A stretch of 63,175 nucleotides of DNA from an uncultured Clostridia bacterium (GTDB taxonomy: Bacteria; Bacillota; Clostridia; Lutisporales; Lutisporaceae), in contig CALGKJ010000097.1 in assembly GCA_937930535.1 (NCBI GenBank), forward strand, positions 1 to 63,175. The letters run 5' to 3'. The position numbers and the translations under genes are program-made. The number at the start of each line of letters is the position of its first letter. Position 1 is the first letter of the stretch. Shown here one piece after another: positions 29,285 to 57,771 of the stretch. The notes under the pieces are model-generated. The model saw nothing but the letters and a program-made list of their open reading frames with translations. It did not search any database and was not told the DNA's origin.

Positions 29285-30544
29285 CTATTGCTCCTTTATC
29301 ACATCTGAATATTTAATTTTCTCACCATCTCTTATCAGAAACACGTCTTTGTCAGTTGCTGCTTTATCAGAATTCTTGTGTTCTAAAGAATATTGATAAA
29401 ACCTTTTAACTATTACATCCGCATACTTTTCATCAACCTCTATTGTGTAACAAATCCTATCAGTCTGTTCACATGCTATCAAGGTTGAACCGCTTCCCCC
29501 AAAGGGGTCAAGTACTATAGAGTTTGTTAGGCTTGAATTTGTAATTGGGTAAACTACCAATGCTATTGGCTTTGTTGTTGGATGGTGTTCCGATTTTCTT
29601 GGTCTATCAAAATTCCATGTTGTTCTCTGTTTTCTGTCTCCATAAAATTTATGTCCTGCTGTCGGCTTCCATCCTACAAGTACTGGTTCATGGCTATATT
29701 GATAGTCACAGCGACCTAATACTAATGAGTTTTTTACCCATATACAGGTTTGATGACAAAAGAACCCTGCATCTTTAAAGGCTACTCTGAAATTAACTGT
29801 TTCTCTATCTGCATGGAATACATAAATTGTAGCTCCATCAGCCATATTTTCATACATGCCTTTATATGCATTTAGAAGAAACTCGTAGAATTTCTTATCC
29901 TCCATATTATCATTTTGGATTGTTCCTGCTGTCCCTTCATAGGATACATTATATGGAGGATCTGTCACAACTAGGTTTGCTTTCTTTCCATCCATTAAAA
30001 CCTTATATGTTTCAAGTTTTGTGCTGTCTCCACATATTAGCCTATGCCTTCCAAGCAGCCACACATCTCCCTGCTTGGTTATTGGTACTTCTGGTAGTGG
30101 CTCATCAAAGTCATCTTCTTTTATATCCTTCGAGTGAACTTGGCTGAATAAATCATCTATTTCTGCGGCATCAAAGCCTGTAAGATTTAAATCAATACCA
30201 AACCCTTGTAGTTCTTCTAATTCCAATACCAAGTTTTCTAATTCAAAGCCAGTATTCATGGTCAGCTTGTTATGAGCTAATATATATACTTTTCGTTCCT
30301 TATCTGTTAAATGATCTAATCTTATTATTGGGACTTTATCTATCTTTAATATTTTAGCTGCTTCGTATCTGCCATGACCTTCTACTATTTCATCATTCCA
30401 AATACCAATGGGGTCATTGAATCCAAAGGATTTTATTGACTCCACAATTTGATCTATTTGTTTTTCAGTATGAATTTTAGCATTATTCTTATATTTTTTA
30501 ATTTCTGTTATCGGTACATATTCTATTTTTAAATTAATATCCAC
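29285..30544 (-). CDS. ParB-domain DNA methyltransferase (N6-adenine or N4-cytosine)
   Basis: The best start is a GTG preceded by GGGAGGAG, giving 419 aa. The N-terminal ParB/Srx-like domain (PITEIKKYKNNAKIHTEKQI, VEGHGRYEAAKILKI) covers about residues 8-100. The methyltransferase domain has motif IV as TDPPYNVSYEG and motif I as LDPFGGSGSTLIACE later, a beta-class order typical of phage orphan enzymes. The product is base-methylated phage DNA. It is one of two methyltransferases placed between the HNH and terminase genes. Confidence 0.9.
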   Translation of the reverse strand: MDINLKIEYVPITEIKKYKNNAKIHTEKQIDQIVESIKSFGFNDPIGIWNDEIVEGHGRYEAAKILKIDKVPIIRLDHLTDKERKVYILAHNKLTMNTGFELENLVLELEELQGFGIDLNLTGFDAAEIDDLFSQVHSKDIKEDDFDEPLPEVPITKQGDVWLLGRHRLICGDSTKLETYKVLMDGKKANLVVTDPPYNVSYEGTAGTIQNDNMEDKKFYEFLLNAYKGMYENMADGATIYVFHADRETVNFRVAFKDAGFFCHQTCIWVKNSLVLGRCDYQYSHEPVLVGWKPTAGHKFYGDRKQRTTWNFDRPRKSEHHPTTKPIALVVYPITNSSLTNSIVLDPFGGSGSTLIACEQTDRICYTIEVDEKYADVIVKRFYQYSLEHKNSDKAATDKDVFLIRDGEKIKYSDVIKEQ

Positions 30545-30579
30545 AAATTTCTCCTCCCTTGTTAGCAATAAAAAAACAC

Positions 30580-42974: not shown

Positions 42975-43664
42975 TCATTCATTTTTTAGGTGGCGCATAT
43001 TATTAAATTTACACTTAGAATTTATCAAGCATTCACCACACTTTGGATTCCTTGCTGTACAAATATTAGCGGAGAAATCAAGTAGCCCATAGTTATATTC
43101 TTTAAATTCTTTTTTATAAAGTAATTCTCGAGAAATATTCCACAGTCCTTTATCAGTGTGGGGTCTTTTCTTACGTGAACTAATTTCAAAAAACCTTTCA
43201 AAGACTCTGATTACATTTGTATCAACAATTGCATACGGTTTATTAAATCCAAATGACATAACTGCACTTGCTGTATAATCTCCAATTCCCTTGATTTCTT
43301 TCAGTAAATCAAAATTTTCAGGAACATGTCCACCATATTTTCCAGAAATTATCGTGGCAATATCAATAAGTCTCTCAGCTCTGTAGAATAGACCTAATGG
43401 TCTTGTTAACTCTCTAATTTGATTAAGATCAGCTTTTGCCAAATCATTTGGAGTAGAATAATCTGTTATTAACCTATCAAATACAGGAACAACCTTTTCT
43501 GCATTGGTCTGCTGTAGCAATATTTCTGATACTAACACCTTGAATGGACTTCTGCTGTCCCTCCAAGGAAACTTCCTCCCAAATTCATTAAAATAATTAA
43601 CTATACTTTTTTTAAAATATCTAATATTATCTATTTTAACACCGTTAAAACTACTTCTACTCAT
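42975..43664 (-). CDS. Mig-like HhH-GPD T/G-mismatch DNA glycosylase
   Basis: A 229-aa helix-hairpin-helix glycosylase. FPWRDSRSPFKVLVSEILLQ is the N-terminal domain, EIKGIGDYTASAVMSF the hairpin and AIVDTNVIRVFERFF holds the catalytic Asp. The 4Fe-4S loop has C-x6-C-x2-C-x5-C spacing (ICTARNPKCGECLINSKC). The hairpin position that is Lys in endonuclease III is Tyr here. The NUDIX-like C-terminal domain of MutY is absent, and the segment YGLLDFSANIC resembles the methyltransferase-linked enzyme Mig of Methanothermobacter. Next to an m5C methyltransferase gene, it probably repairs T/G mismatches from deaminated 5-methylcytosine. Confidence 0.82.
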   Translation of the reverse strand: MSRSSFNGVKIDNIRYFKKSIVNYFNEFGRKFPWRDSRSPFKVLVSEILLQQTNAEKVVPVFDRLITDYSTPNDLAKADLNQIRELTRPLGLFYRAERLIDIATIISGKYGGHVPENFDLLKEIKGIGDYTASAVMSFGFNKPYAIVDTNVIRVFERFFEISSRKKRPHTDKGLWNISRELLYKKEFKEYNYGLLDFSANICTARNPKCGECLINSKCKFNNMRHLKNE

Positions 43665-43860
43665 TTATCCTCCATTTGAATTGTGCAAATTGATAAAATC
43701 AATTATAAAAGGTAGGCGATTTCTTTATTCTCATTCTTAAAATCATCTAGTTAAATATTTATTATACACCTTAATGAGCCTCTAAATTTAGCTTAATCAG
43801 CTCAACTTTAATATGAAGCAACATTAATTAGATACTATATAAACCTTCATTATAATTTTT

Positions 43861-45162
43861 CTAATTTGCATCAATATTATCTGAGTGAACTAAAATTTTA
43901 AGCAGTTCTTCAGCTATGAGTTTTATTATTGGAACAGACACTGCATTGCCAGCTTGTTTGTATAAGTTAGAATCAGCGTAGGGTTTATTATTATATTTCG
44001 TAGGCAGAACATACCCATTCCCAACTGGAAACCCTTGAAGTCTAAAAGCTTCCGCCGGTGTTAACTTTCTAATTCCATTTTGTACTTTTATTAGAGGGAC
44101 ATTATGACCTCCAGTCCCCATATTTGCAGTCAATGTTGGGCAGACATCACTTTTATTTTTACGCACATACATACTTCTTCTAACTTGATAGAACTGATGC
44201 ATTTCATTAATATCTTCTTCCAAGTTAATCCTGACGCCTTTTTTTAAATTATTCTTTGATTCAAATTCGTCTTGTGTAACAAAGTAGTGGGGATACTTAT
44301 CTTTGGTGTAGTAGTATTTTGAATCCTCAACCGAATAGTCAATGATTTTCTTAACATCATCAGCTCGATCCTGAGTGGTCTTTATCATCTTAAACTCTGA
44401 TAGTCGAGAAAACATGTCAAATTTTGCAGCATCTTCGGGATTTAAAAAACCAATTATATATATCCTTTCGCGATTCTGAGGTAAGTCAGAGTAAGACATT
44501 GTATTTAATACTGATTCAAAAATCTGGTATCCTGTTTTTTCAAGTTCCTGTTTTATTACTTTATATGTTCTATTGTTATCGTGCGACTTCAGATTTTTTA
44601 CATTTTCTAAGAAGAGAATCCTTGGCTTTTTATGTCTCTCACCAAGCTGATTAATCAAATCTATAATACTAAGAAATAAGTTGCCTCGCTCGTCTTCGAA
44701 TCCTTTCTGCTCGCCTGCAATGCTAAATGCCTGACAGGGGAACCCGCCGTTTAATACATCAATTTCTTCACTAAATATTACTTCATGCATTTTTTCATAG
44801 TAATTTTCGTTCTTATGCTGTATTAATTTCTTCAAATACTTTGAGGTATCTCTTATTTTTTCTTTGGCTTTTTTTATTTCTTCTTTTTTTGTCTGCGTCT
44901 TAATACTCTCTTCTAATTCAATTATAGACTTTTCCTTCTCAGCTATGACATCAGGTATTCTTTCCGGTCTGAGTATTAGATTAATATCTCCCTCTATTAA
45001 TGTATGATTAAAATTAGTTCTGTAAGTTTCACAAGCATATTCATCGATTTCATTTGCCCAGACTACCTCATATTCAGCATTATTATTCTGAGCCTGCATA
45101 AATCCATGGCAGATTCCCCCTACACCAGCGAAAAGACTTCCGACTTTAAACTTCTTCTTCAT
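43861..45162 (-). CDS. DNA cytosine C5-methyltransferase of the defence island
   Basis: A 433-aa m5C methyltransferase. Motif I is SLFAGVGGICHGF, motif IV GGFPCQAFSIAG with the catalytic Cys, motif VI ENVKN, motif VIII LPQNRERIYIIG, and the C-terminal motifs are LTPAEAFRLQGFP and YKQAGNAVSVPI. About 70 extra residues, highly charged and coiled-coil-like (EKSIIELEESIKTQTKKEEI), are inserted between motif III and motif IV, where canonical enzymes have only a few residues. It would protect the host genome in a restriction system. The Mig-like repair gene follows and the four-gene block precedes. Confidence 0.93.
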   Translation of the reverse strand: MKKKFKVGSLFAGVGGICHGFMQAQNNNAEYEVVWANEIDEYACETYRTNFNHTLIEGDINLILRPERIPDVIAEKEKSIIELEESIKTQTKKEEIKKAKEKIRDTSKYLKKLIQHKNENYYEKMHEVIFSEEIDVLNGGFPCQAFSIAGEQKGFEDERGNLFLSIIDLINQLGERHKKPRILFLENVKNLKSHDNNRTYKVIKQELEKTGYQIFESVLNTMSYSDLPQNRERIYIIGFLNPEDAAKFDMFSRLSEFKMIKTTQDRADDVKKIIDYSVEDSKYYYTKDKYPHYFVTQDEFESKNNLKKGVRINLEEDINEMHQFYQVRRSMYVRKNKSDVCPTLTANMGTGGHNVPLIKVQNGIRKLTPAEAFRLQGFPVGNGYVLPTKYNNKPYADSNLYKQAGNAVSVPIIKLIAEELLKILVHSDNIDAN

Positions 45163-45425
45163 TATTGTACCTCTTTATACTAAATTTTATTTTGTACATG
45201 ACGTATGTTACCTCTGATTTCATATATAGTCCAGTAGATAATTAATCAAACAATGTTATTGCAAAAACTTGTCCCTTAAAATTAAAAAGTTTTTTCAACA
45301 TTATTCACTCTTTCTCAATGTTTGCATATTTAAATTTTACTAGAAACACTACGACTATTCAATACTATGCTAAATATGCCTTGTTATATTTAGTAAACTT
45401 ATAAATAGCAAAATACACAAAACCA

Positions 45426-48218
45426 CTAATAGGCTTGTGTATTTTGAACAATAGAAAAAGTTTCGCCATCATATTTTATATAGTCAGATGTATAAAGTTC
45501 TTTAGGAATACACTTAATTATCAGACCCTTAAGTCTTAAATACCCTTCAAATTCATAGAGTGTAACTTTATCAACTCCATCTTTGCTCATTATATATACA
45601 ACAAGCTCATCAAAGCTGGTTATTGGGAAGTCTTGGCGAATAACAACGCCACGTATATATCTCCGATCCTTAATCTGCTGCTCAACAATTTTATAACCAC
45701 ATCTATAATCTTCAATCAGTGAAACAACTAAAAACTCATTCCATTCATATCCTATATCCGGGAAGCCCTCATAGTCAAATATTCCCTGTATGGAAAGATA
45801 TTCGGATTTATCAATAAGAACCCCAACCCTATAATTAAAGAATTCAATCTGCTCCATAGTAATGCTAAAATGCTGTCTAAAAACATATTCATCAGATGAT
45901 ACTCTAATACAGTCTTTTTCAATTAGTCCAAAAACCATACTTGCAGTCACTGGCGACCACTTTAAACGCTCTGTAAGTTCGATGTATTTTGAGTAGAAAA
46001 TTCTATCCTTTTGCTTCAAGAAGCTTAATGCTATACTTTTAGACTCTAGTCCAGTTTCTGCAAATATTGGAGTCATTATGTGAGGACGGCGGAATACATA
46101 TTTATCTGAGAAGAAGTATCCAACAATATAATAGAGGTGAACAGCCTCCTCTATATTATTATTCTTAAAGAACTCCTCCATTCTGTCAGCAGCCATTATA
46201 TAAAGTAGTTCATCACTTGTATATCCACTATTTTCGTGAAGTGCATCATTAATAATTTGGTTAAGCTCCTCAATATCAGCGGTCTGTACTTTTATATTAT
46301 CAATACTGTTAAAATAGTTGTAGCCCCACTGGATAATCCTAGATTCATTCATTATACTGTTAAAAATAACAGTGGGGCTAATCCCCTGAAGGTTCCTCTG
46401 TATTTCATCCCGATGAACACATTTTCCTTTATCAGTCAAAATCATGTTTATTCGCTCAGCAACACTGCAGAAATGCCCTTCTGGTTTCGTTAAATAATCC
46501 CTGCTGAAAGAATACTCTCCCTCATAATAGAATTTAAGCACACCATGAAGGTAGTGGTGATTATCAATACCGCTGGTCATTACTAATAAGCCTTGAAATT
46601 CGTCAAACAGCTCGCTGTAGAATATTTCAGCTCTAGGGAGAGCCTCTATATGTTCTTTTATTGTACTTATGATATGCTGAGGTACTGACATATTTTCAGG
46701 CGCTGTATATATACCTCTTCCCCTTAGTATCAAATACTCACTTATACGTGCTGTCAGCGCCCTGTTATTTTCAGGTAATTCAACCCCTTTAAATTCAGAC
46801 TTAATAATATTTCTAAGTCTACTAAGATCTTCGTCGTCATATACTCTTATCCCATTTTGAAAGTGGATTCTTACAACCTCTCGGCATAAAACGGCATAGG
46901 ACTGTTTTCCTTTCACTACATAATCGCCATAAATACGATACCCATTTAGCCGTAAAAAGTTTATGAATTCCTCAGTACCTATATATCCAATCCGGAGCTT
47001 AGTCAATCGTGATTTTACTTCTTCAAGTGATTGATATAAATAAGCTGTAGCACCAATTATTTCTTCAGCTATTTTTCCAAGGGTAGCCTCCAAATTTTTA
47101 GATACTTCATCACATTTAAGAAACATATCAGCGAAATCAAAGTACAGGTATTTTCCAGTCTGCTTCAGTATATACTGCAGCATTGTTGAGACCTTATTAT
47201 CCTTCATAAAATTATCAATGTCATCAACTCTTAAACTTCCCATTTCTGCAGTAGCATTTATTAAATCTGCTGCTAATCCAACTACCTTAACTAATTTATT
47301 AACTAATTTATTTTCAATTTGTCCAATTCGTGCTCTGCTTAAGTCATATTCTTCTCCTATTTTCTGAAGCGTATATCCTTCTGCTCTCTTAGATAAAATT
47401 TTAAATTCCTTGTCGTTTTCATATTCTCTAAATATACTGATTACAATCTCATTAAACGGCTTTATTAGGCACTTCAAAGTAGACAGCAATCCACTATATA
47501 TCTGTGTTCCAAGTTTTGATCTTAATGCTCCTGCAGATGAATATTTTAAATCTTTAATCTTTAACAAACCATTTTCTTCTATATGGTTAATTATTCTGTC
47601 GCTTATTCCGATAATTTTCAAAGAAGCTACATTAACCATTTCATTGTCGCTACATATAAATTCAAATGGGTAAAAACCATACTCTTCGGAACTTGCTTCT
47701 TTATTTTGAATGTTTAGTTCGATTATATTCTCCTCATATACCTGCTTCAGCTGTTCAATTGTTCCTACACCAATTCCTCTCAGAGCCGCCGCTTCATGAA
47801 ATATTTCAGGCGAAATGTCTTCTAATGAATTGATGTCCTTACTTCTGCACATTCTAATAAATGCCGCAGATCGTGCCACCCTTCTAAAAACATCTAATCC
47901 GCCGACCGCTATTCTGCTTACATGCTGTTCGGTACTGTCCGCAGAAAGGCAGTAGCTGACTTCTTCTATACTACATGTGGTATTCTCATCTTGGCAGAAT
48001 TTTAAGAATCGATCCCTTACCCTGCTGATTTTCGCCTCTCCCATCCACTTTACACTATATAACTGCATAAAATTAAAATCTACTAACTCTTCAGCAAAGC
48101 AAATACCATTTTCAGTGCAGTATTTAACAAATAAAGAATATTCATCTCCACAGAATACATCCTCAATCTTGTGCAAACCCGTTACCCCCACGTATATTAA
48201 ATATTTACTTTCCAGCAC
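45426..48218 (-). CDS. 930-aa HhH and sigma-region-4-like protein of the GHKL cassette
   Basis: A large protein without a recognised enzyme domain. A helix-hairpin-helix-like segment (AAALRGIGVGTIEQLKQVYE) lies near residues 143-162, and a second one resembling the RNA polymerase alpha C-terminal domain (ISDRIINHIEENGLLKIKDL) near 205-225. A sigma-70 region-4-like helix-turn-helix (AEGYTLQKIGEEYDLSRARI then GQIENKLVNKL) spans about 279-309. Winged-helix-like segments occur later (GKCVHRDEIQRNLQGISPTV). Multiple DNA-binding modules suggest a scanning or sensing subunit. It overlaps the DUF6339-like gene by 14 bases. Confidence 0.6.
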   Translation of the reverse strand: MLESKYLIYVGVTGLHKIEDVFCGDEYSLFVKYCTENGICFAEELVDFNFMQLYSVKWMGEAKISRVRDRFLKFCQDENTTCSIEEVSYCLSADSTEQHVSRIAVGGLDVFRRVARSAAFIRMCRSKDINSLEDISPEIFHEAAALRGIGVGTIEQLKQVYEENIIELNIQNKEASSEEYGFYPFEFICSDNEMVNVASLKIIGISDRIINHIEENGLLKIKDLKYSSAGALRSKLGTQIYSGLLSTLKCLIKPFNEIVISIFREYENDKEFKILSKRAEGYTLQKIGEEYDLSRARIGQIENKLVNKLVKVVGLAADLINATAEMGSLRVDDIDNFMKDNKVSTMLQYILKQTGKYLYFDFADMFLKCDEVSKNLEATLGKIAEEIIGATAYLYQSLEEVKSRLTKLRIGYIGTEEFINFLRLNGYRIYGDYVVKGKQSYAVLCREVVRIHFQNGIRVYDDEDLSRLRNIIKSEFKGVELPENNRALTARISEYLILRGRGIYTAPENMSVPQHIISTIKEHIEALPRAEIFYSELFDEFQGLLVMTSGIDNHHYLHGVLKFYYEGEYSFSRDYLTKPEGHFCSVAERINMILTDKGKCVHRDEIQRNLQGISPTVIFNSIMNESRIIQWGYNYFNSIDNIKVQTADIEELNQIINDALHENSGYTSDELLYIMAADRMEEFFKNNNIEEAVHLYYIVGYFFSDKYVFRRPHIMTPIFAETGLESKSIALSFLKQKDRIFYSKYIELTERLKWSPVTASMVFGLIEKDCIRVSSDEYVFRQHFSITMEQIEFFNYRVGVLIDKSEYLSIQGIFDYEGFPDIGYEWNEFLVVSLIEDYRCGYKIVEQQIKDRRYIRGVVIRQDFPITSFDELVVYIMSKDGVDKVTLYEFEGYLRLKGLIIKCIPKELYTSDYIKYDGETFSIVQNTQAY

Positions 48219-48924
48219 TTAGTTTAGCGGCAACTTTGCTATATATATCATCATATGATAAACAGTCAAGTATATATGTACCGCCTAATATATTTATATA
48301 CTTTGAAATTTCTCTAACAGTAAATCTATCAATCTTAATGCCACTCTTTTGCGCATCTAAAAGAGCGCTCAACATCCCCCTCATTACCGATGGGTTTTTT
48401 GTAAAATTTCTGCCGAAAACTGATTCCATATAGTCTGTATCAGTGCAGACAAATTGAGTCAGTTCATATGGATCAGTTCGATTTTGATCATATGTTATTT
48501 TCCCCATCCACCATAAGCGCGATATACCATTACGGAAAAGTGATCGCTGAATTGAGTAGTTAAATAAATAGTGATTAGCCATATCATTTGCATTCTCAGC
48601 GGGCCATCTGTATTTCATGTATTCTGAATATCTTCCAAAGCATAAACTTGCCCACATTCTTTCATCTGATGCCTGTGATTCAGACAGAAACCTCACGTGC
48701 TTATATACTCTCTTAATATTCTCAAGATCTGTTAAACTGCTCTTTGTTTGAGATGTATCAAGGTCAAAATCATCCAAGTCAAAAGAAGTCTCTAAGAGTA
48801 CTCCTTCCCCCTGGATATACTCTTCAATAGCAGCATTCCCCTTCTTTAAAAAGTTTTTATAAATATGTTCCGTATTGGTTTTAATGCTGATTAGGCTGTC
48901 TTCTGAAAAAATCTTTAACTTCAT
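48205..48924 (-). CDS. DUF6339-like protein of the GHKL cassette
   Basis: A 239-aa soluble protein. ERMWASLCFGRYSEYMKYRW, SLFRNGISRLWWMGKITYD and DPYELTQFV match the pattern I associate with DUF6339, a family of unknown function seen beside GHKL-type ATPase genes. The C-terminal INILGGTYILDCLSYDDIY is also typical. It overlaps the upstream gene by ATGA and the downstream gene by 14 bases, so stoichiometric expression with its partners is likely. The assignment is from memory of the family pattern. Confidence 0.65.
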   Translation of the reverse strand: MKLKIFSEDSLISIKTNTEHIYKNFLKKGNAAIEEYIQGEGVLLETSFDLDDFDLDTSQTKSSLTDLENIKRVYKHVRFLSESQASDERMWASLCFGRYSEYMKYRWPAENANDMANHYLFNYSIQRSLFRNGISRLWWMGKITYDQNRTDPYELTQFVCTDTDYMESVFGRNFTKNPSVMRGMLSALLDAQKSGIKIDRFTVREISKYINILGGTYILDCLSYDDIYSKVAAKLSAGK

Positions 48925-49790
48925 ACTGCATCCTCCTCGTCTCCTAATGAGAGAAATTCTAATGATTTTAACAGTGGTGTATTCAGCAGCTGCTGTGCAA
49001 ACTCAAATGAATTGATCCTATTAAATCCTTCCTCTGTGAATTCTACCCCAAACCTCTTTGCAGTCTTTCTCAATGAACGGAACCACCTATAGTCCTCATA
49101 CATAAATAAGTTTCCACATTCTCTCTTAAGTTCATCAATTACATGCATTAAGGATGGTACAATGATCATCGAATGCATAGCTGGCTGTAAATTCGGCATG
49201 CTCTTCATGTTCTTATACCTGTAGTATGCTGTTTCAGGTAGAATAACTACAATCTTCTGTTTACCTGTGTCTACCTTAATCAGCTGTACATTTTTATCTG
49301 AATTTTGTATTATACAGAATATTGATGATGTATTGGCAACGTCATCCCGCTCTTTATCAATACGAATATTTGACTGGCTGCCAACTGCTATAATACAGCC
49401 TTTATCAATGTTAAAGCGAAATCCTCTGTAATCTGGATTAAAATCTTTATTTGAATATGCAGGTATGTCTTCAGCAGCAGTAATGAATGTACATACTTGC
49501 ACCAATCCATTAAGTTTACTGTCAGAAATTATATACTCAAATAAACTTGAATCACAATTTACTGCTGTTCTAAAACAGGTCTGCGGACATTCTATATGGT
49601 GAGTATAAACCGCCTTGCCCTGTTTAATAAGCAGCTGAAGTTCTTTATTATCAGTTTCAGCACTGAGCGTAAACTTTATGTTATAGCCATCTAATGCAGC
49701 TCCTGCACTAGATGTGAATTTACTTGCACTATAATCATCTGTGTCTTCTGCCAAAACAGGATATGGATACTGTTTATATTTTATTACCAT
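48921..49790 (-). CDS. Unknown 289-aa protein of the GHKL cassette
   Basis: A soluble, beta-rich protein with no family I recognise. The N-terminal half (YKQYPYPVLAEDTDDYSASK, KAVYTHHIECPQTCFR) looks like a strand-rich domain with two conserved-looking Cys; a helical C-terminus (SMIIVPSLMHVIDELKRECG) follows. No catalytic motif is visible. It overlaps the ATPase gene by 17 bases and the DUF6339-like gene by four, so it is presumably a structural partner of the ATPase. Confidence 0.6.
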   Translation of the reverse strand: MVIKYKQYPYPVLAEDTDDYSASKFTSSAGAALDGYNIKFTLSAETDNKELQLLIKQGKAVYTHHIECPQTCFRTAVNCDSSLFEYIISDSKLNGLVQVCTFITAAEDIPAYSNKDFNPDYRGFRFNIDKGCIIAVGSQSNIRIDKERDDVANTSSIFCIIQNSDKNVQLIKVDTGKQKIVVILPETAYYRYKNMKSMPNLQPAMHSMIIVPSLMHVIDELKRECGNLFMYEDYRWFRSLRKTAKRFGVEFTEEGFNRINSFEFAQQLLNTPLLKSLEFLSLGDEEDAV

Positions 49791-51636
49791 ATGCTTTTAC
49801 CTCCATTGAACAGTAGTCAGAATACCCAATTTTGATATTTATACGTACAGGTACATCTTTAATAAAGTCTAGTTCCTTTATAAGCCCATCTGAAACATGC
49901 AGTGCCTTACCAGATACAAGCGCTGCACTGACAATTGGTGCAGTATAATTTCCACTTTCTGCAGTTAAGAAAATTTCAAGATATCCATTTGATACTGATG
50001 TCTGCGGGACAAACATAATTATATATTTACCTTCTGACTTATTTTCACATACTACTCTGATCTTTTCTGCCTTAATCTCTTTAAAAGAAGGCATTGGCTC
50101 AGACCCACCTAAGTGCGGTGCAGCTGGTTCAGGCGGTCGAGGACCTGGGTTTACTATTTTCCCACCTCCATGATTGTATCCAGAATCATCCACGTCACCA
50201 TCACTTTTTCCGGTTAGATCTTCCTCTTCATTCTTGTCACCTCTGGTTTCACTTCCAGCATTAGGCTTTCTTTTTACACGAGTAATTTCTATCTCTTTAA
50301 CTTTATTTGAAATAGTTTCTTCTTTCCCACCTTCCTTGACGTCATCTGCATCATCTGGAAGATATTCACCTACTCCTTCTGCATCAAGCTGTTCATCAGC
50401 ACTCTGCTGAGCGAGTTTTTCCAAACAGTCTTTTATATAATCATTAAGACCTTTAATAATGTTTTTGGCCATGATTGGATTATTTGAGCGCTCTGGCTCC
50501 CATTTAGTGTGCTGAGGATTCTCAAGTTTTCTTAGTATTGTATTAATTCGCTCTCCCTCAATCAGCATAATGCCACCAAAGGGTATATACCCAGAGATAT
50601 TACCTCTATCCATAATCTTCATGCCAGTTTTTCTCAACATTGCTACCTTACGGTGCATTTCCCGATCAATTAATAATCCAAGTTTAATTATTCCATAGTT
50701 CATAAAATCTGTTTCAAACCACTCAGTTTTATCAGATGTCAGTACTCTATAATATTTATCAGCATAACCGGTAATTTGGTCAGCATAAATACTCATTAGT
50801 TCAGGCAAAGTTCCCTTACTTATCACTTGTTCTCCAACATGAACGATAAGGCGCTCATTCCATATAGAACCAAGGAAATCATCAATTATTGAAATTATGA
50901 TGTCATCTTTCCAATCCTCACCAGAAAATCTGTATCCGGCTATATAAATATCTGTCCCATACCCAGCCTCTACTCTAGAGAAGTGAGGATCTAAGTCAAT
51001 AGATTCATATACGGGTGTATTTCTTTCATTACCAAAGTACCCTATCCCCTGTGTTGTTTCTCCGTCATCATCTCTGAAAGTAACAAGTCTCGAGACTCCC
51101 TGACTTGCTACTACTTCTTCATTATCGTATGTATTATAGTATACTGTTGAGAAGCTCGAGCAAGCATAAGGTGCAAATTTACCAATACCAAAAGAACCTC
51201 CTGCTGTTCCGCCCTTATCCGAAACCCCTGATGATTTTGTAAGGTTTGTCCAATCTGTATTAAGTTCTTTCTTTGAACCCCTTAAGCCAGTTGTATTGAA
51301 ATCACTTATCCTAAGCATGTTTACTTTATAGTCATTTATTTTTTCAATTGCTTCATCAAAAAAGTCTTTTGTTTTCTTTGATTTTTGATTTTTCCAAAAT
51401 TCCATGCATTTATCAAAGACTCTTCTAAGTTCACTGCTACCGGGTATCTGTGAAGGGCTCAGAGAAAAAGCAGAGAACTCAACTTTAACAGTACCTCCAG
51501 TTCCCGCATCAAGTGAATTCTGACAAATTTCTCTTGCAAGAGATTTAATTGGTGTTCCTCTAAACGTTTCGAGACCCGAATCACCTATACCCTTAATTTC
51601 ACCGTGACCGTTAGACGGAAATTTCCACTGTGCCAT
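49774..51636 (-). CDS. GHKL/Hsp90-like ATPase
   Basis: A 620-aa protein starting at the ATG after GGGGTG. Its Bergerat ATP-binding fold has an N box SLAREICQNSLDA (Glu36, Asn40, Asp43), a G1 box ISDFNTTGL (Asp112, Gly117) and a G2 box GGTAGGSFGIGKFAPYACS (about 142-160). A mid domain follows, then an acidic, low-complexity linker (about 425-510) and a beta-rich C-terminal domain. Related GHKL ATPases occur in restriction-associated clusters and include the relatives of MORC proteins. It probably acts as an ATP-driven clamp on DNA. Confidence 0.85.
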   Translation of the reverse strand: MAQWKFPSNGHGEIKGIGDSGLETFRGTPIKSLAREICQNSLDAGTGGTVKVEFSAFSLSPSQIPGSSELRRVFDKCMEFWKNQKSKKTKDFFDEAIEKINDYKVNMLRISDFNTTGLRGSKKELNTDWTNLTKSSGVSDKGGTAGGSFGIGKFAPYACSSFSTVYYNTYDNEEVVASQGVSRLVTFRDDDGETTQGIGYFGNERNTPVYESIDLDPHFSRVEAGYGTDIYIAGYRFSGEDWKDDIIISIIDDFLGSIWNERLIVHVGEQVISKGTLPELMSIYADQITGYADKYYRVLTSDKTEWFETDFMNYGIIKLGLLIDREMHRKVAMLRKTGMKIMDRGNISGYIPFGGIMLIEGERINTILRKLENPQHTKWEPERSNNPIMAKNIIKGLNDYIKDCLEKLAQQSADEQLDAEGVGEYLPDDADDVKEGGKEETISNKVKEIEITRVKRKPNAGSETRGDKNEEEDLTGKSDGDVDDSGYNHGGGKIVNPGPRPPEPAAPHLGGSEPMPSFKEIKAEKIRVVCENKSEGKYIIMFVPQTSVSNGYLEIFLTAESGNYTAPIVSAALVSGKALHVSDGLIKELDFIKDVPVRINIKIGYSDYCSMEVKAYGNKI

Positions 51637-51654
51637 ATATTTCACCCCTTATAC

Positions 51655-51885
51655 TTATCTTAACTTAAATTTCTTTTCACTTACTTCAACAGTATCGAAC
51701 TTTGTTTTTGCAGCTTTTAACTCAGTTTCTATTGCTCCAAAAATTTTAAAAATATCATCCCTACTATAATCGTAAACTGCTTTATTTGAACAATTTCCAA
51801 GAAGTCTTACCATTTCAAGGATTTTATTTGTACGAGACTCTGCTATTCGAATAAATTTCTCATTCTTTGTTTCTTTATTTTTCAT
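51655..51885 (-). CDS. Small conserved protein heading the defence operon
   Basis: A 76-aa protein starting at the ATG after GGAGG. It is highly charged and helical: IRIAESRTNKILEMVRLLGN then CSNKAVYDYSRDDIFKIFGA, with a Lys-rich end. Similar small proteins occur on plasmids and beside restriction systems; function unknown. Position as first gene of the operon fits a controller or DNA-binding accessory protein, but no helix-turn-helix is certain. Confidence 0.65.
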   Translation of the reverse strand: MKNKETKNEKFIRIAESRTNKILEMVRLLGNCSNKAVYDYSRDDIFKIFGAIETELKAAKTKFDTVEVSEKKFKLR

Positions 51886-51951
51886 ACAGATCCTCCTCAA
51901 CTAGCAAAATATGTATACTTAAAATATAACAACATTTATTACATGCGTCAA

Positions 51952-51988
51952 TTATTTTGTATATATTTAATTTATTTTGTATATATTT
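51952..51988. promoter_or_regulatory. Direct-repeat operator candidate between the divergent defence operons
   Basis: Two identical 17-base copies of TTATTTTGTATATATTT begin at 51952 and 51972, exactly 20 bases apart (about two helical turns). A related ATTTTGCATATAA lies near 52002. They lie in the 235-bp gap between the small protein gene and the nuclease gene, so they could bind a shared regulator or hold tandem -10 boxes. Confidence 0.5.
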
Positions 51989-52120
51989 TTTTTATATAAA
52001 ATATTTTGCATATAACAGCATTCTTCTTTAAATAATTTACATATATTAAGTACATCTTTATTGTAGCTTTTCAACTAGAGTGTTACAATAAAATAAAAAC
52101 TGAAATTAGGAGGCTGATTT

Positions 52121-53257
52121 ATGTTTATTAAACAGCAGAGTAAATCTTCTATAGATATATACTGTGAAACGCTACAAGCAGTTGGAGCATTGTCTCGACT
52201 AGCTTCCGATAATAATATACCTTATCTAGGATATAGAGAGGCAGAAAATATTTTTTGCGATTCATTTACAGCAAAAAATCTAGCAAGAGCAGATTGTTCA
52301 GCAGATGCCTCAAAGAATGGATTTGGCATAGGAATTAAAACCTTTTTAAATGGAACAGGTAAAACACTTCAGAAAGTCGCTGAGTTCAACAAACTAGCTT
52401 CTGAATTTAGAGGGAAAGATGCAGAACAAGTAGTTCATATTGTTTCAAACCTTCGAAATGAGCGTATACAGTTCACAAAGAGAACCTATGCTATTAAAGA
52501 TATGATTTATCATTGTATAGTACGTGATACTGGGAAAATCATGATTTATGAAACACCAATGGATGAGATAAAGATATCTGAAGTAAAAAATATCGCCACA
52601 ACATCTGGTAATATAATTACATTCAGTGATAAAATAAACGAATACAGCTTTAACATATCCAAGAGTACACTATATAAGCGCTTTATTACCGATAATATTT
52701 TAATTGATATTCCTATAATCATTTTAAAAAATCCATATGAGCTAATACGACGCCTCTTCAGTGGCTACTTCAGTGGGTCATTAATTCCGGTTTCTGAAAA
52801 ATTTGAAGAACATGTAGTACTGCCACTATTCTCTGATAAAGGGGGAAGAAATGTTCCTGAAAAAAGCGGGCTTAATCAGTGGAATGCCGCAGGGCGCCCA
52901 CGAGACCCAGATGAAATCTACATTCCTATTCCTGCTTGGATACATAGGAATTTTCCTGACTTCTTTCCAAATAGAGATATGCCTTTCGACCTGCTACTGC
53001 CAGACAGCAATACTATGCAGGCAAAGGTCTGTCAGGATGGAGGCAAGGCACTCATGTCGAATCCAAACGCAGCACTTGGAAAGTGGATGCTCCGCAGTGT
53101 CCTCAACCTAAAACAACGTGAACTGCTGACTTATGAGCGACTAAAAGTTCTCGGAATCGACTCTGTAATAATATACAAAGAATCCGACAGTAGGTATCAT
53201 ATTGACTTTAAAGAACTAGGGACATATGATGATTTTGTTATAGAACATAACTTCTAG
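52121..53257 (+). CDS. Putative restriction endonuclease with B3-like DNA-binding domain
   Basis: A 378-aa protein after an AGGAGG site. The N-terminal part has YREAENIFCDSFTAKNLARA followed by DCSADASKNGFGIGIKTFL. Glu40/Glu42, Asp62 and Lys73 fit an irregular PD-(D/E)XK nuclease core. The C-terminal about 120 residues (RPRDPDEIYIPIPAWIHRNF, LLPDSNTMQAKVCQDGGKAL, then LGKWMLRSVLNLKQ) resemble the B3-like DNA-binding domain of NgoFVII/BfiI-type enzymes. No PLD-type HxK motif is seen. It is divergent from the methyltransferase operon and is the likely cutting partner. Confidence 0.7.
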   Translation: MFIKQQSKSSIDIYCETLQAVGALSRLASDNNIPYLGYREAENIFCDSFTAKNLARADCSADASKNGFGIGIKTFLNGTGKTLQKVAEFNKLASEFRGKDAEQVVHIVSNLRNERIQFTKRTYAIKDMIYHCIVRDTGKIMIYETPMDEIKISEVKNIATTSGNIITFSDKINEYSFNISKSTLYKRFITDNILIDIPIIILKNPYELIRRLFSGYFSGSLIPVSEKFEEHVVLPLFSDKGGRNVPEKSGLNQWNAAGRPRDPDEIYIPIPAWIHRNFPDFFPNRDMPFDLLLPDSNTMQAKVCQDGGKALMSNPNAALGKWMLRSVLNLKQRELLTYERLKVLGIDSVIIYKESDSRYHIDFKELGTYDDFVIEHNF

Positions 53258-53334: not shown

Positions 53335-53652
53335 ACCGTGTACTCATGACCTTCTCCCTTTAATTTGATCCATTCCCAAAGTTAGTCTGGATGATATTGA
53401 CACTAACGTAATTTCATTAACATAAAGGTAGGATAATAACATTAACCTTGTAATTTCCATTTATACTTAATAGTGAAAGGCTTAACATTCCCATTATATT
53501 AATCAAAATATATTAATAGTAAACATAGCAGATATCCAGATATATGGTATTAAAGCCTTTAATATGCTAAAATAGGTAGTGTTATGATGTCAAAAATCAT
53601 ATGCATGATATTAAATGGACAGGCTTTATTGCCTGACTTAAGGAGGGGTAAT

Positions 53653-54036
53653 ATGCCACAAGCTGGAGATAGATATGTAGTAACAATTAAACCTTCACAT
53701 ATTGATTGGGGAGAGTACAGAAATCCTACTAATAGAACCATTATTGAAGGTGAATCTTATGTAAAGATACCATCTGATGCAGCTACACAGTATGGAATAG
53801 TTAGAGGTTCAACGTATACTGCTCATTTCACTAATGGTCATGATTCGTTTAAAATTAAAGCTTCGGGTAATGGACCTTTTACAAATGGAGTTCAATATGG
53901 TAAGCAGTTTGAGGGTATTGGTTATGGTGCATGCAAGGCATTTACACCATGGTATGTCTCATGCAATGCCCAAGTTGGTGACAGAGTGCAGGTAGAGTTT
54001 ATTTCTCCTACAGAGGTACAGTTTACGTTAGTATAA
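53653..54036 (+). CDS. Stand-alone B3-like putative DNA-binding protein
   Basis: A 127-aa protein starting at the ATG after AAGGAGGGG. It is all beta-like: PQAGDRYVVTIKPSHIDWGE, GESYVKIPSDAATQYGIVRG, SFKIKASGNGPF and VGDRVQVEFISPTEVQFTLV. The IPS...RG...G.F pattern and the C-terminal strand pair recall the B3-like domain at the C-terminus of the neighbouring nuclease. No catalytic residues are evident. It could be a specificity or regulatory factor of the defence island. The assignment rests on fold-pattern resemblance only. Confidence 0.5.
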   Translation: MPQAGDRYVVTIKPSHIDWGEYRNPTNRTIIEGESYVKIPSDAATQYGIVRGSTYTAHFTNGHDSFKIKASGNGPFTNGVQYGKQFEGIGYGACKAFTPWYVSCNAQVGDRVQVEFISPTEVQFTLV

Positions 54037-54481: not shown

Positions 54482-56140
54482 TCATCTAAATAGTGCTGAC
54501 ATGGCAGATAGTGAAGAAATAACACCATCAGCAGTTGCCATTCCAGAAAAAATCGGTCTATACTTTGATTTATTTCCTCTTAATTTATAGCTTAAAATAG
54601 CACCTATTGACATAGTAATATAAATACTAAAAGGCAACATAATACCACCAATTATTATTATAGGTGACAATTTGCATTTATTCAGTATAATACAAATAAT
54701 ACATGAAGTAATGATTACATATACGTTAATATAACTAGGAAGGATATTATTACTTAATGACTCTACCATACCTTTTATAGTCATCCCTAGCGTATTTGCA
54801 TATGGTATTGGCAATTGCTCCGATCCGAAAACAAATGATTTGCTGAATATATATACTAAACCAACACAAAATAACGCTCCACAAAAATTACTTAATATAT
54901 TTAAGTATATGTTCTGCTTCTTGGTAATGCCAAAAGCACTCGAAAATTCTGCATTCACTATAAAATATATTCCGGACATTTCAAATACAATCAGACTAGT
55001 AATTATCATTATAATAGTTGTTATATTTGTAGTAAAGGTAAGTAATATTATCAATATTGGTAATAAATCCTCAAGTGCAGAAAACCAAAAACCAGTTTTA
55101 GCTACGCCATGTAAGGTTGAAAAGCCAAGTATAACAGTAATAGGAACTAGTATTAGAAATATCCAAAAAGGCATTGTATTGGCAGGGTTTAAATATCTTG
55201 AAAAGAATAACATATTAAATAGTAAGAATAATATCAAAACTACGATACTTGAAGATGATGCTTTTGTAGATATAAGTTCTTTTATTGTAGTTCTTTTCAG
55301 GTTAGCATTTTCTATTTTTCTATTTTTAAGCTTCTTAATCCCCTCTGAAACGAAACTAAATATTGTAATAAAACCTTGTGTCAATATAAATGAAATTACT
55401 ACTGAAAAAATGTATGGGTTCATCAATTGTTCTACAAAGGTTTTACTGTTATAAATTAAGTAAATAATTACAGAGTATAAGAATCCAATACCCATAATAA
55501 GATAAGTATCATATCCAATTAGATATCCGATAGCAATAAGCATTGGATTATTATCAATACCAAACATACCTATAAATTTAAATGATTTTGGAATTATTTT
55601 CATTATGTTGACTAAAAACGAATATAGGGATGTTAATGAAAGAGATAGTATTAATCCATTATTTTTTTTATCCTTACTTAGTGCATTGAATAAATCAATT
55701 CTTGGCTTAACCATGGGAAACGAAAATTTATCTTTATTATCAAAATACTCATAAAAACATGAGAAAAACAATACGCCTAGAACAGAGGAAACAAGTATTA
55801 TAAAAAACATTTTTATTGAATCTGCGGTTTTGTAGCTACTACTAAAAATTAAAATTGCAGCAAAATAAGTAGCAGCTTGTCTAGTTGCTGCAATAGACCC
55901 TCTTGCAATGATTTCTGCAACAACTGCATTTTTTATTGTAAATCTACCAATCAATAATAATACTAGCAGTACTAACGCTGCTGTATCTATTGTGGAACTA
56001 ATCCCGCTTTTAAACGATAGAAATATTGAAGCCATAATTATTACACTATTTACTACTACTCCGACCACAGATGAATGGATATAGCTATTTTTGGGCAAGC
56101 CCTCTACCTGCTTTTTAACTTCTGTAACATTCTCAATCAT
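54482..56140 (-). CDS. OPT-like oligopeptide transporter of the RiPP operon
   Basis: A 552-aa integral membrane protein with about 13-15 helices. SYIHSSVVGVVVNSVIIMAS, RGSIAATRQAATYFAAIL, NPMLIAIGYLIGYDTYLIMG and the final GMATADGVISSLSAM resemble OPT/YSL-family transporters, which usually take up oligopeptides or metal chelates. It is the third gene of a unit starting with a small peptide and a radical-SAM enzyme. It may export the mature peptide, or import it for sensing. The OPT call is by pattern; another polytopic transporter family is possible. Confidence 0.65.
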   Translation of the reverse strand: MIENVTEVKKQVEGLPKNSYIHSSVVGVVVNSVIIMASIFLSFKSGISSTIDTAALVLLVLLLIGRFTIKNAVVAEIIARGSIAATRQAATYFAAILIFSSSYKTADSIKMFFIILVSSVLGVLFFSCFYEYFDNKDKFSFPMVKPRIDLFNALSKDKKNNGLILSLSLTSLYSFLVNIMKIIPKSFKFIGMFGIDNNPMLIAIGYLIGYDTYLIMGIGFLYSVIIYLIYNSKTFVEQLMNPYIFSVVISFILTQGFITIFSFVSEGIKKLKNRKIENANLKRTTIKELISTKASSSSIVVLILFLLFNMLFFSRYLNPANTMPFWIFLILVPITVILGFSTLHGVAKTGFWFSALEDLLPILIILLTFTTNITTIIMIITSLIVFEMSGIYFIVNAEFSSAFGITKKQNIYLNILSNFCGALFCVGLVYIFSKSFVFGSEQLPIPYANTLGMTIKGMVESLSNNILPSYINVYVIITSCIICIILNKCKLSPIIIIGGIMLPFSIYITMSIGAILSYKLRGNKSKYRPIFSGMATADGVISSLSAMSALFR

Positions 56141-56251
56141 TAAACATCACTCCTAATTCTTATGTCTAACAAAAACACGGATATATTATTATAATCCGAC
56201 TATAGGGTTTTTAGCTTAAAAGTTGGCTTATACAAAGCTGAAAACCTAGAA

Positions 56252-56300
56252 GGGAAGCAATAACTAAATATGAACAAATTAAGTTTTAGGGTTGCTTCCC
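56252..56300 (-). terminator. Hairpin between maturase and transporter genes
   Basis: GGGAAGCAA and TTGCTTCCC pair across a loop of about 31 bases directly after the radical-SAM stop. The following minus-strand sequence is only moderately T-rich, so partial read-through into the transporter gene is plausible. Confidence 0.5.
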
Positions 56301-56307
56301 TATACTA

Positions 56308-57771
56308 CTAGTAATCAATAATACTATCTCTCAATAAACTTATTTTTGCTAAAATTTGTGCTTCTCTCTCTCTATTTAATTCGTTTTGTCTAAGTACTTC
56401 ACTGTCAAACATTTGTGGCTTTGTTGCCGCTACCCACAGCATTTCGATAAGTTGTTCCCTCTCAAAATTGCAACTGCAAGACAGTGCATATATATCGCCT
56501 GTATTTGCTAGTGCTTGTCCCCTGCACCCACCACCACAGAAGTGCCTTACAGTACATTCTGCACATTGTTTATCTAAGTTCTTATTTATGTGTATCTTTC
56601 TTAAGTCCTTCAAAATCGGAGATTCTTTCCAAATGTTAAGAAAATCATTGTCTAAAATATTTCCACAGTTCATTGTACTATGAATAGTGTTTGCACAAGG
56701 ATAGCAATCACCATTAGGCTGAATAGCCAGTGTTCCTGTCCCAGTACCACAGTTAATCATTCTATTTAATAATTTTATATTAGATATATACATAGCTTCA
56801 AGTGTCCCAGGTATATAATTTATTAAGTCAGGATCATCTTCATACATCTCAACAACCTTTTTAAACACTACTGCATCATTTACCCTCTCTAACTTGTTTT
56901 CTTTTGCTCTACCAATACAAATAACTGGTTGTAAAAATACGGCTTTAATGCCAAGTTCTTTTGCTAAATAAAAATATTGCTCTATCTCAGCAAAAAAATC
57001 GTGTGTAATCATAGGAGATAAATGTACTTTATGACCCTCTTCAACTAGACATTTTATCCCATCAATTGTTTTTTCATATGTATTTTTTCCACGAATTTTC
57101 TCATGCGTATTTTTCGTTGCTCCATCCAAAGAAACTTGAATTTTTAAATTAGATATGCGTTTAAGTCTTATAGCTATGTCTTTTGTAATTAAAGTTGCAT
57201 TAGAAACCAAATTTATTCTATCATACCCTTTATAAGCAAAATACTCTAATATTTCGTAAACATCCTTATTCATCAAAGCTTCTCCGCCCGAAACATTAAT
57301 TCTACACGATTCAATCATATAAGGTGATATTTTGTCTATTATTTTTTTAGCGTCCTCAAATGTCATATATTGCTTTTTTAAATTAGATGCATCGATATAA
57401 CAGTGTGAACAATACAGATTACATGCATTTGTAATATTAAAGGTAAGATATTGAATAAAAAAATCTTTAGGTTCTTTTATGTCTAATTCATTGTTTTGGC
57501 CCTCATAGCTTAATGCACAAGCATCATGAAGAATATTAATTAAACTCATAAGTTCATCTATATCAGGCTCAATATCGTACTTATGTCTTACTACACTCAC
57601 TAAATCAATTATGCTTATACCATTTATATAATCAAGTAACTCTACTGTTGGTTGATTTATATATAACCAAAATGGTAATTGTGACCATATAACAATTTTA
57701 TTCTCGTCTTCGATTTTTTCAAGTATAGAATATGGTTTTAAATACATTTTTCTATTATCCAATTTTGCCAC
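56308..57771 (-). CDS. Radical-SAM SPASM peptide maturase
   Basis: A 487-aa enzyme. Residues about 15-95 look like a PqqD-type recognition (RRE) domain (LPFWLYINQPTVELLDYING). The radical-SAM cluster motif is ITNACNLYCSHCY (C-x3-C-x2-C, near 118), with a GGEAL motif later. The SPASM region has MINCGTGTGTLAIQPNGDCY and CAECTVRHFCGGGCRGQA, sites for auxiliary 4Fe-4S clusters. It should install a crosslink or other C-H-derived modification on the adjacent 28-aa precursor. The gene starts 57 bases after the precursor stop, beyond a long hairpin. Confidence 0.92.
   Translation of the reverse strand: MAKLDNRKMYLKPYSILEKIEDENKIVIWSQLPFWLYINQPTVELLDYINGISIIDLVSVVRHKYDIEPDIDELMSLINILHDACALSYEGQNNELDIKEPKDFFIQYLTFNITNACNLYCSHCYIDASNLKKQYMTFEDAKKIIDKISPYMIESCRINVSGGEALMNKDVYEILEYFAYKGYDRINLVSNATLITKDIAIRLKRISNLKIQVSLDGATKNTHEKIRGKNTYEKTIDGIKCLVEEGHKVHLSPMITHDFFAEIEQYFYLAKELGIKAVFLQPVICIGRAKENKLERVNDAVVFKKVVEMYEDDPDLINYIPGTLEAMYISNIKLLNRMINCGTGTGTLAIQPNGDCYPCANTIHSTMNCGNILDNDFLNIWKESPILKDLRKIHINKNLDKQCAECTVRHFCGGGCRGQALANTGDIYALSCSCNFEREQLIEMLWVAATKPQMFDSEVLRQNELNREREAQILAKISLLRDSIIDY

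What the first reader, a model, noticed from the sequence alone, without database searches (positions are those of the whole stretch)
42975..53257. GHKL ATPase / sigma4-HhH cassette wired to an m5C restriction set
Seven co-oriented genes (76-aa protein, GHKL ATPase, 289-aa unknown, DUF6339-like, 930-aa HhH plus sigma4-like, m5C methyltransferase, Mig-like glycosylase) face a divergent nuclease candidate. The first five genes and both methyl-related genes are in one direction with tight overlaps among the four core genes. GHKL ATPases are known in restriction contexts, but the combination with a large protein that merges alpha-CTD-like HhH and sigma4-like helix-turn-helix modules is not a system I can name. 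It may sense foreign or transcribing DNA and trigger the nuclease.
Basis: partly seen in the sequence, partly recalled or inferred. Interest (0 to 1): 0.88.

Follow-up and report, generated by a model that had tools for sequence, protein, structure and literature searches.

The report
MORC-like defence cassette beside restriction-modification genes
A five-gene cassette built on a MORC-type ATPase is inherited as one unit next to a DNA-methylating restriction system, and its largest protein strings together promoter-reading-like and winged-helix DNA-binding folds and has relatives in two other kinds of phage defence, so it looks like a shared DNA-reading part that I could not find described.

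Summary
Window 42975-53257 holds eight genes: V (MutY-like), m5C methyltransferase, D (930 aa), C (DUF6339), B (289 aa), A (GHKL ATPase) and e (76-81 aa) on the minus strand, facing an NgoFVII-type restriction enzyme. A, B and C are not unnamed: they match PADLOC's candidate system PDC-M33 (E 1e-226 to 1e-89), and A carries the ExxxH signature of paraMORC2, reported in 2008 in restriction contexts. What is new is D. Among the closest relatives e-A-B-C-D is a fixed operon; D is co-inherited with A as tightly as B and C are (distance r 0.92, against 0.58 for the methyltransferase). Its predicted structure is helix-hairpin-helix segments, a sigma region-4 helix-turn-helix, then nine winged-helix units. 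The residues that read the -35 element are nearly invariant in the family but partly lost in this copy. D homologues also stand directly before BrxP in type 4 BREX and before PbeA in PbeA/PbeC systems. The restriction partner is swapped (NgoFVII, FokI-like, type III). My reading: an R-M-coupled defence module in which D reads DNA and directs the GHKL clamp. Identity and coupling are well supported; the mechanism is inference. The cassette probably rides on a prophage.

The parts
51655..51900 (-). e: small protein (81 aa from TTG, 76 aa from inner ATG), first gene of the cassette
   Evidence: Homologue beside the A gene in 44 of 99 loci; found in no other of 199 phylum genomes searched
49774..51645 (-). 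A: GHKL ATPase, PDC-M33A, paraMORC2-like
   Evidence: PADLOC PDLC04582 E 3e-226; invariant E38/Q41/D45, D114/G119, G149/G152/G154-K155, G229-T230-D231 and E374xxxH378; paraMORC2 ExxxH signature from PMC2292703
48921..49790 (-). B: 289-aa PDC-M33B; predicted Ig/FnIII-like beta sandwich (7-146) plus helical C-terminus, no enzyme fold seen
   Evidence: PADLOC PDLC04583 E 3e-100; AF2 mean pLDDT 91; Foldseek/VIA
48205..48924 (-). C: DUF6339 protein, PDC-M33C
   Evidence: PF19866 E 2e-56; PDLC04586 E 3e-89
45426..48218 (-). D: 930-aa protein: HhH segments + sigma region 4 + nine winged-helix units
   Evidence: Sigma70_r4; AF2 mean pLDDT 83; family in 20 of 99 loci; co-inherited with A, r 0.92
47469..48176 (-). 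D residues about 15-250: helical, HhH-like (alpha-CTD-like by sequence inspection; lower model confidence at 79-113 and 167-181)
   Evidence: model; no Pfam hit
47289..47426 (-). D residues 265-310: sigma region 4; -35-reading helix conserved in family (R295 24/24, E296 22/24, R299 23/24, Q300 24/24), but A296 and G299 here
   Evidence: 3n97 Z 7.6, rmsd 1.3, 36% identity over 45 residues; profile hits sigma factors at 1e-10
45450..47231 (-). D residues about 330-923: nine tandem helix-then-hairpin (winged-helix) units, spaced about 60-80 residues
   Evidence: residues 584-639 match winged helices at Z up to 10.1, rmsd 1.0
43861..45162 (-). m5C DNA methyltransferase of the type II R-M system
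   Evidence: PF00145 E 1e-74; PDLC03272 E 4e-99
42975..43664 (-). V: MutY/EndoIII-family glycosylase or nicking enzyme
   Evidence: PF00730 6e-21, 4Fe-4S motif; PDLC03398 type II nicking endonuclease 9e-44; homologues beside 5 other cassettes
52121..53257 (+). Type II restriction endonuclease with NgoFVII-type B3 DNA-binding domain
   Evidence: PF20731 8e-13; PDLC03479 9e-97; homologues follow D directly in L042 and L043

Best explanation
e-A-B-C-D is a D-containing variant of the candidate defence system PDC-M33, whose ATPase is of the paraMORC2 kind, working as a companion to a type II m5C restriction-modification system and here probably carried by a prophage. Shown by sequence: identity of A, B, C; fixed operon; co-inheritance of D; R-M proximity with exchange of the R-M partner. 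Inferred: D, a long string of DNA-binding folds, reads incoming DNA (modification state, or promoter-like sequence through its sigma-4 part); A, a GHKL dimer expected to close like a clamp on ATP binding, is loaded there with B and C as scaffold; the closed complex either blocks or condenses the foreign DNA or licenses a nuclease. None of A-D shows a nuclease domain, so cutting would be left to the partner restriction enzyme, which fits the exchange of R-M partners. Self DNA would be spared by methylation.
For: PADLOC hits to PDC-M33A/B/C; GHKL motifs and ExxxH against the paraMORC2 description and R-M context. Order e-A-B-C-D (e or not) in 15 loci including the window and D-first in 5. Distance correlations with A: B 0.94, C 0.93, D 0.92, MTase 0.58. 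m5C MTase within 7 kb in 51 of 99 loci, and 25 of 47 with full flanks, against a background I estimate at about 0.2 genes per Mb, i.e. of the order of 100-fold enriched. Exchange of partners: NgoFVII REase + MTase (L042/L043), fused MTase-NgoFVII (L040/041/051/053/088), FokI-type REase lying inside the operon between e and A (L045/046), type III R-M (L075); Sau3AI, AlwI and type I neighbours on plasmids. D homologues in type 4 BREX and PbeA/PbeC loci. No enzyme fold seen in B. VcSduA, a paraMORC3-type GHKL-nuclease, is a tested anti-phage protein (PMC12137116).
Against: No function of PDC-M33 or DUF6339 is reported in the library searched. In the evenly drawn phylum sample 7 other genomes hold the B gene, none with D adjacent, and only 2 with an m5C MTase in the 20 kb read, so D and the m5C link belong to part of the family and are not essential to the trio. 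Some trios lie in other defence surroundings (McrBC-like, Gabija-like helicase, Z1, TIR) or beside no defence gene recognised among those scanned. This D copy lacks two of four -35-reading residues. A and C were not modelled, so a hidden catalytic site in them is not excluded.
Confidence: 0.45

Rival explanations
1. D is a transcription regulator of the cassette and R-M genes (sigma-like or C-protein-like, using alpha-CTD-like and sigma-4 folds to act at promoters), not part of an effector complex.
For: Sigma region 4 with conserved -35-reading residues in the family; sigma-4 match to the structure of alpha-CTD and sigma-4 on UP/-35 DNA (3n97); first-gene position in BREX, Pbe and D-first loci.
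Against: A protein of 930 to 1320 aa with nine winged-helix units is far larger than known R-M control proteins; it is the last, translationally overlapping gene in this clade; no sigma region 2 hit; this copy has lost two -35-contact residues.
Confidence: 0.25
2. The e-A-B-C(-D) module is a guard: it stays silent while the R-M system works and kills or stalls the cell when the R-M system is inhibited or overrun.
For: Consistent partnership with, but frequent exchange of, the R-M system; the small dedicated e gene in front could be a regulator.
Against: No toxin-like domain recognised in A, B, C or D; many trios have no R-M system nearby.
Confidence: 0.15
3. Plain defence-island neighbourhood: module and R-M system act independently and are merely co-inherited.
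For: The trio occurs alone or with unrelated systems in many genomes; the MTase is inherited more loosely than D.
Against: FokI-type R-M genes lie inside the operon between e and A in L045/L046; m5C MTase in 13 of 15 D-last loci.
Confidence: 0.15

Closest known systems
PDC-M33 (PADLOC phage defence candidate, A/B/C)
   Same: A, B and C match its models over nearly full length
   Different: D and e match no PADLOC model; no experimental function found in the library searched
paraMORC2 GHKL family (Iyer, Abhiman and Aravind 2008, PMC2292703)
   Same: GHKL motifs, conserved ExxxH, R-M context, common in Gram-positives
   Different: The sections of the paper read here do not name B, C, e or D; its figures, supplements and sequences were not compared
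MZA (mzaABCDE, cited in PMC9523054)
   Same: Pairs a sigma-factor-like protein (MzaA) with a GHKL/MutL-type protein (the latter from my own knowledge)
   Different: D matches the MzaA model only in the sigma-4 stretch (15 bits, cut-off 800); no Z1 or AIPR protein found in the finding's genes
Shedu type with GHKL domain (VcSduA, paraMORC3; PMC12137116)
   Same: GHKL ATPase in anti-phage defence
   Different: The nuclease is fused to the ATPase there; no nuclease domain was found by profile in A
Type 4 BREX and PbeA/PbeC (CxC ABC-ATPase) systems
   Same: Many carry a D-family protein directly before BrxP or PbeA
   Different: No BrxP, BrxC, PglZ, BrxL, PbeA or PbeC in this cassette; type 4 BREX modifies DNA by phosphorothioation (PMC12839542)
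NgoFVII-type type II R-M
   Same: REase C-terminal domain and m5C MTase family
   Different: The window REase's N-terminal part has no hit to the PLD domain of NgoFVII in Pfam

Membership tests
PDC-M33 | Adjacent genes matching PDC-M33A, B and C models | tested here: met
   E 3e-226, 3e-100, 3e-89; overlapping genes
paraMORC2 | GHKL ATP-binding motifs | tested here: met
   invariant motif residues in 12 sequences (no Pfam GHKL model reached E 1)
[quoted passage not shown]
   E374xxxH378 invariant in 12 of 12; S5 placement by order only
paraMORC2 | S5-fold domain after GHKL; grouping with published members | not tested
MZA (mzaABCDE) | MzaA sigma-like protein over its full model | tested here: not met
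   15 bits against cut-off 800, only residues 279-309
MZA (mzaABCDE) | Z1 and AIPR partner proteins | tested here: not met
   None among the finding's nine proteins
Sigma-70 family (D) | Region 2 (core-polymerase and -10 binding) together with region 4 | tested here: not met
   Only region 4 found
Type II m5C R-M system | Linked m5C methyltransferase and type II REase | tested here: met
   activity and shared recognition site not testable here
Type 4 BREX / Pbe | BrxP-BrxC-PglZ-BrxL, or PbeA and PbeC, beside D | tested here: not met
   None among the finding's proteins
Active anti-phage system | Reduces phage plating or plasmid uptake | not testable with these tools
   Needs assays

The most novel reading that the evidence does not exclude
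The D family is an undescribed, shared promoter- or modification-reading subunit used by at least three different DNA-modification-linked defence systems (paraMORC2/PDC-M33 with R-M, type 4 BREX, PbeA/PbeC). In the paraMORC2 systems it would bring a MORC-like clamp to promoters of unmodified DNA and silence them, a bacterial parallel of eukaryotic MORC silencing.
Probability: 0.15. Interest if true: 0.88.

Novelty: new variant of a known kind. Interest (0 to 1): 0.62.

Why it matters
It turns an anonymous PADLOC candidate into a defined five-gene module with a co-inherited, unusually built DNA-binding subunit, and links it by that subunit to type 4 BREX and PbeA/PbeC systems. If D is the DNA reader, one protein family would explain target choice in several systems whose recognition step is unclear. 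If the ATPase silences rather than cuts, it would be a bacterial counterpart of MORC silencing, whose prokaryotic function is still largely open.

Tried and rejected
An iterated REase profile drifted into methyltransferases through fused MTase-NgoFVII proteins; I discarded its counts and used single-pass hits. Genome-collection scan with B alone found nothing; alignments of D and B had no stretch conserved enough to scan. Profile search of 398 genomes with the D alignment returns ordinary sigma factors nearly everywhere through the sigma-4 part; only long matches were used; likewise for BrxP, where only E below 1e-200 counted as BrxP, apart from L175, taken as BREX by homology to the L027 genes. 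No D in plasmid or phage records with the window's D, nor in plasmids with a BREX-type D; a Pbe-type D found only a sigma-factor-like protein on Cetobacterium plasmids, with no evident defence system beside it. No solved relative of A, B or C by sequence. B's fold matches are generic Ig-like sandwiches, Z 8 at most; no function is read from them. The 150-aa ORF 53584-54036 as a second REase domain: weak (E 0.049; no BLAST match). Prophage ends by empty site: no relative holds the flanks; no exact repeat of 13 bases or more between the two candidate ends. An L034 protein matching D weakly was not counted. Promoter and terminator scan near chance.
Full report
Observation. On the minus strand, in order of transcription: e (51655-51900), A (49774-51645), B (48921-49790), C (48205-48924), D (45426-48218), m5C methyltransferase (43861-45162) and V (42975-43664). 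A restriction endonuclease faces them at 52121-53257. A/B, B/C and C/D overlap by 17, 4 and 14 bases and e ends 9 bases before A; the methyltransferase follows D after 263 bases.

What the proteins are. A, B and C match the three models of PADLOC candidate PDC-M33 over nearly their whole length, and C is the Pfam family DUF6339. A has no Pfam or NCBIfam hit, but an alignment of twelve relatives shows the GHKL motifs and an invariant E374xxxH378. Iyer, Abhiman and Aravind (PMC2292703) give a conserved ExxxH in the S5 domain as the mark of paraMORC2, a GHKL family common in Gram-positives and found with R-M genes. I file A as paraMORC2-like; grouping with the published sequences was not tested. 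The restriction enzyme carries an NgoFVII-type B3 DNA-binding domain, and V is a MutY/EndoIII-type protein.

Neighbourhood survey. An even sample of 398 phylum genomes gave 8 with the B gene, the window's included; the seven others had the trio without D. A scan of the species-genome collection with the A alignment gave 80 further loci, chosen as the best matches to A and therefore centred on the window's nearest kin, plus 7 viral contigs. Of 99 loci with a usable A gene, B lies beside it in 95, B and C in 88 and e in 44; D is near it in 20, 15 as the last gene (window included) and 5 as the first. On the A tree the D-first loci form one supported group and the D label is strongly clustered (6 changes against a shuffled mean of 19). 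Several loci inside the D-last clade that lack D (L044, L049, L052) end at a contig edge before the place where D would lie. Among the D-last loci, protein distances of D follow those of A as closely as B and C do (0.92 against 0.94 and 0.93), while the methyltransferase follows less closely (0.58). D is therefore a regular part of the cassette in this clade.

Restriction partner. An m5C methyltransferase lies within 7 kb in 51 of 99 loci, in 25 of 47 with full flanks, and in 13 of 15 D-last loci. From 149 phylum genomes I estimate a background of about 0.2 such genes per Mb, so the association is of the order of a hundredfold above chance; it is partly shared by descent. The partner changes: NgoFVII enzyme and methyltransferase after D (L042, L043), a fused methyltransferase-NgoFVII protein (L040, L041, L051, L053, L088), a methyltransferase and FokI-type enzyme lying inside the operon between e and A (L045, L046), type III R-M (L075). 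On plasmids the trio without D sits near Sau3AI-, AlwI- and type I-like systems. Other trios lie beside McrBC-like, Gabija-like, Z1 or TIR proteins, and some beside nothing recognised among the proteins scanned. The small e gene was found nowhere else in 199 genomes.

D. The AF2 model (mean pLDDT 83) shows helical HhH-like segments, a sigma region 4 at 265-310 and nine helix-then-hairpin units between 341 and 923, which match winged helices best at residues 584-639 (Z 10.1, rmsd 1.0). The sigma part matches the structure of alpha-CTD and sigma-4 on UP/-35 DNA (3n97, Z 7.6, rmsd 1.3, 45 residues). The four residues equivalent to those with which sigma-70 reads the -35 element (R584, E585, R588, Q589 of E. 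coli, from my own knowledge) are R 24/24, E 22/24, R 23/24 and Q 24/24 in the family; the window's copy has Ala and Gly at the second and third. No sigma region 2 was found, so D is not a sigma factor by that test.

D elsewhere. D-family proteins stand directly before BrxP, or one gene away, in six of the eight type 4 BREX loci read (L027, L028, L032, L173, L175, and L176 by the sigma-4 stretch only; not in L177 or L178), and directly before PbeA in L029, L031, L174 and L179. Several of these loci were found through D itself, so the fraction is not an unbiased rate. The text of two recent reviews of these systems, as searched, does not mention such a protein; their figures and supplements were not read.

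Mechanism. B is predicted with high confidence as an Ig-like sandwich with a helical tail and without a recognised enzyme fold. No nuclease domain was found in A, B, C or D by profile. The most economical reading is that D reads DNA, A is an ATP-driven clamp, B and C hold the complex together, and the effect is either blocking or condensing foreign DNA or licensing the partner enzyme, with methylation marking self. Everything after the gene identities and co-inheritance is inference. The chief rivals are D as transcription regulator and the module as a guard of the R-M system.

Setting. A prophage with integrase, endolysin, tail, capsid, portal, terminase, helicase and polymerase genes runs from about 5.3 to 42.4 kb. 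G+C of the cassette (0.33-0.36) is like that of the prophage (mostly 0.35-0.39) and above that of the adjoining flanks (about 0.28-0.31), so it is probably prophage cargo; ends could not be proved.

Noticed in passing
window 5270-42434: Near-complete prophage with two tandem serine recombinases at its left end; the cassette directly follows its repressor region and shares its G+C level.
   Followed up: partly
window 28041-29237 and 29285-30568: A second m5C methyltransferase and a ParB-domain/methyltransferase fusion inside the prophage.
   Followed up: no
L027, L028, L032, L173, L175, L176: D-family protein heads type 4 BREX operons (directly before BrxP, or one gene away in L027).
   Followed up: partly
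L029, L031, L174, L179: D-family protein directly before PbeA in PbeA/PbeC systems.
   Followed up: partly
L045 1734-4226 and 13431-15839: Two D-family genes in one locus, the first followed by a Schlafen-type helicase (PDC-S41) and a Vsr-sized protein.
   Followed up: no
L033 4589-7921: A second D-family protein (1110 aa) elsewhere in the window's own genome, on a short contig, partners unknown.
   Followed up: no
window 53584-54036: 150-aa ORF after the REase with a borderline NgoFVII_C match (E 0.049).
   Followed up: partly
window 54482-57771: Large membrane protein and radical-SAM/SPASM-like protein (by eye) right of the cassette, with ABC transporter-like genes at the left end of the window: possibly a peptide-maturation cluster split by the prophage.
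   Followed up: no
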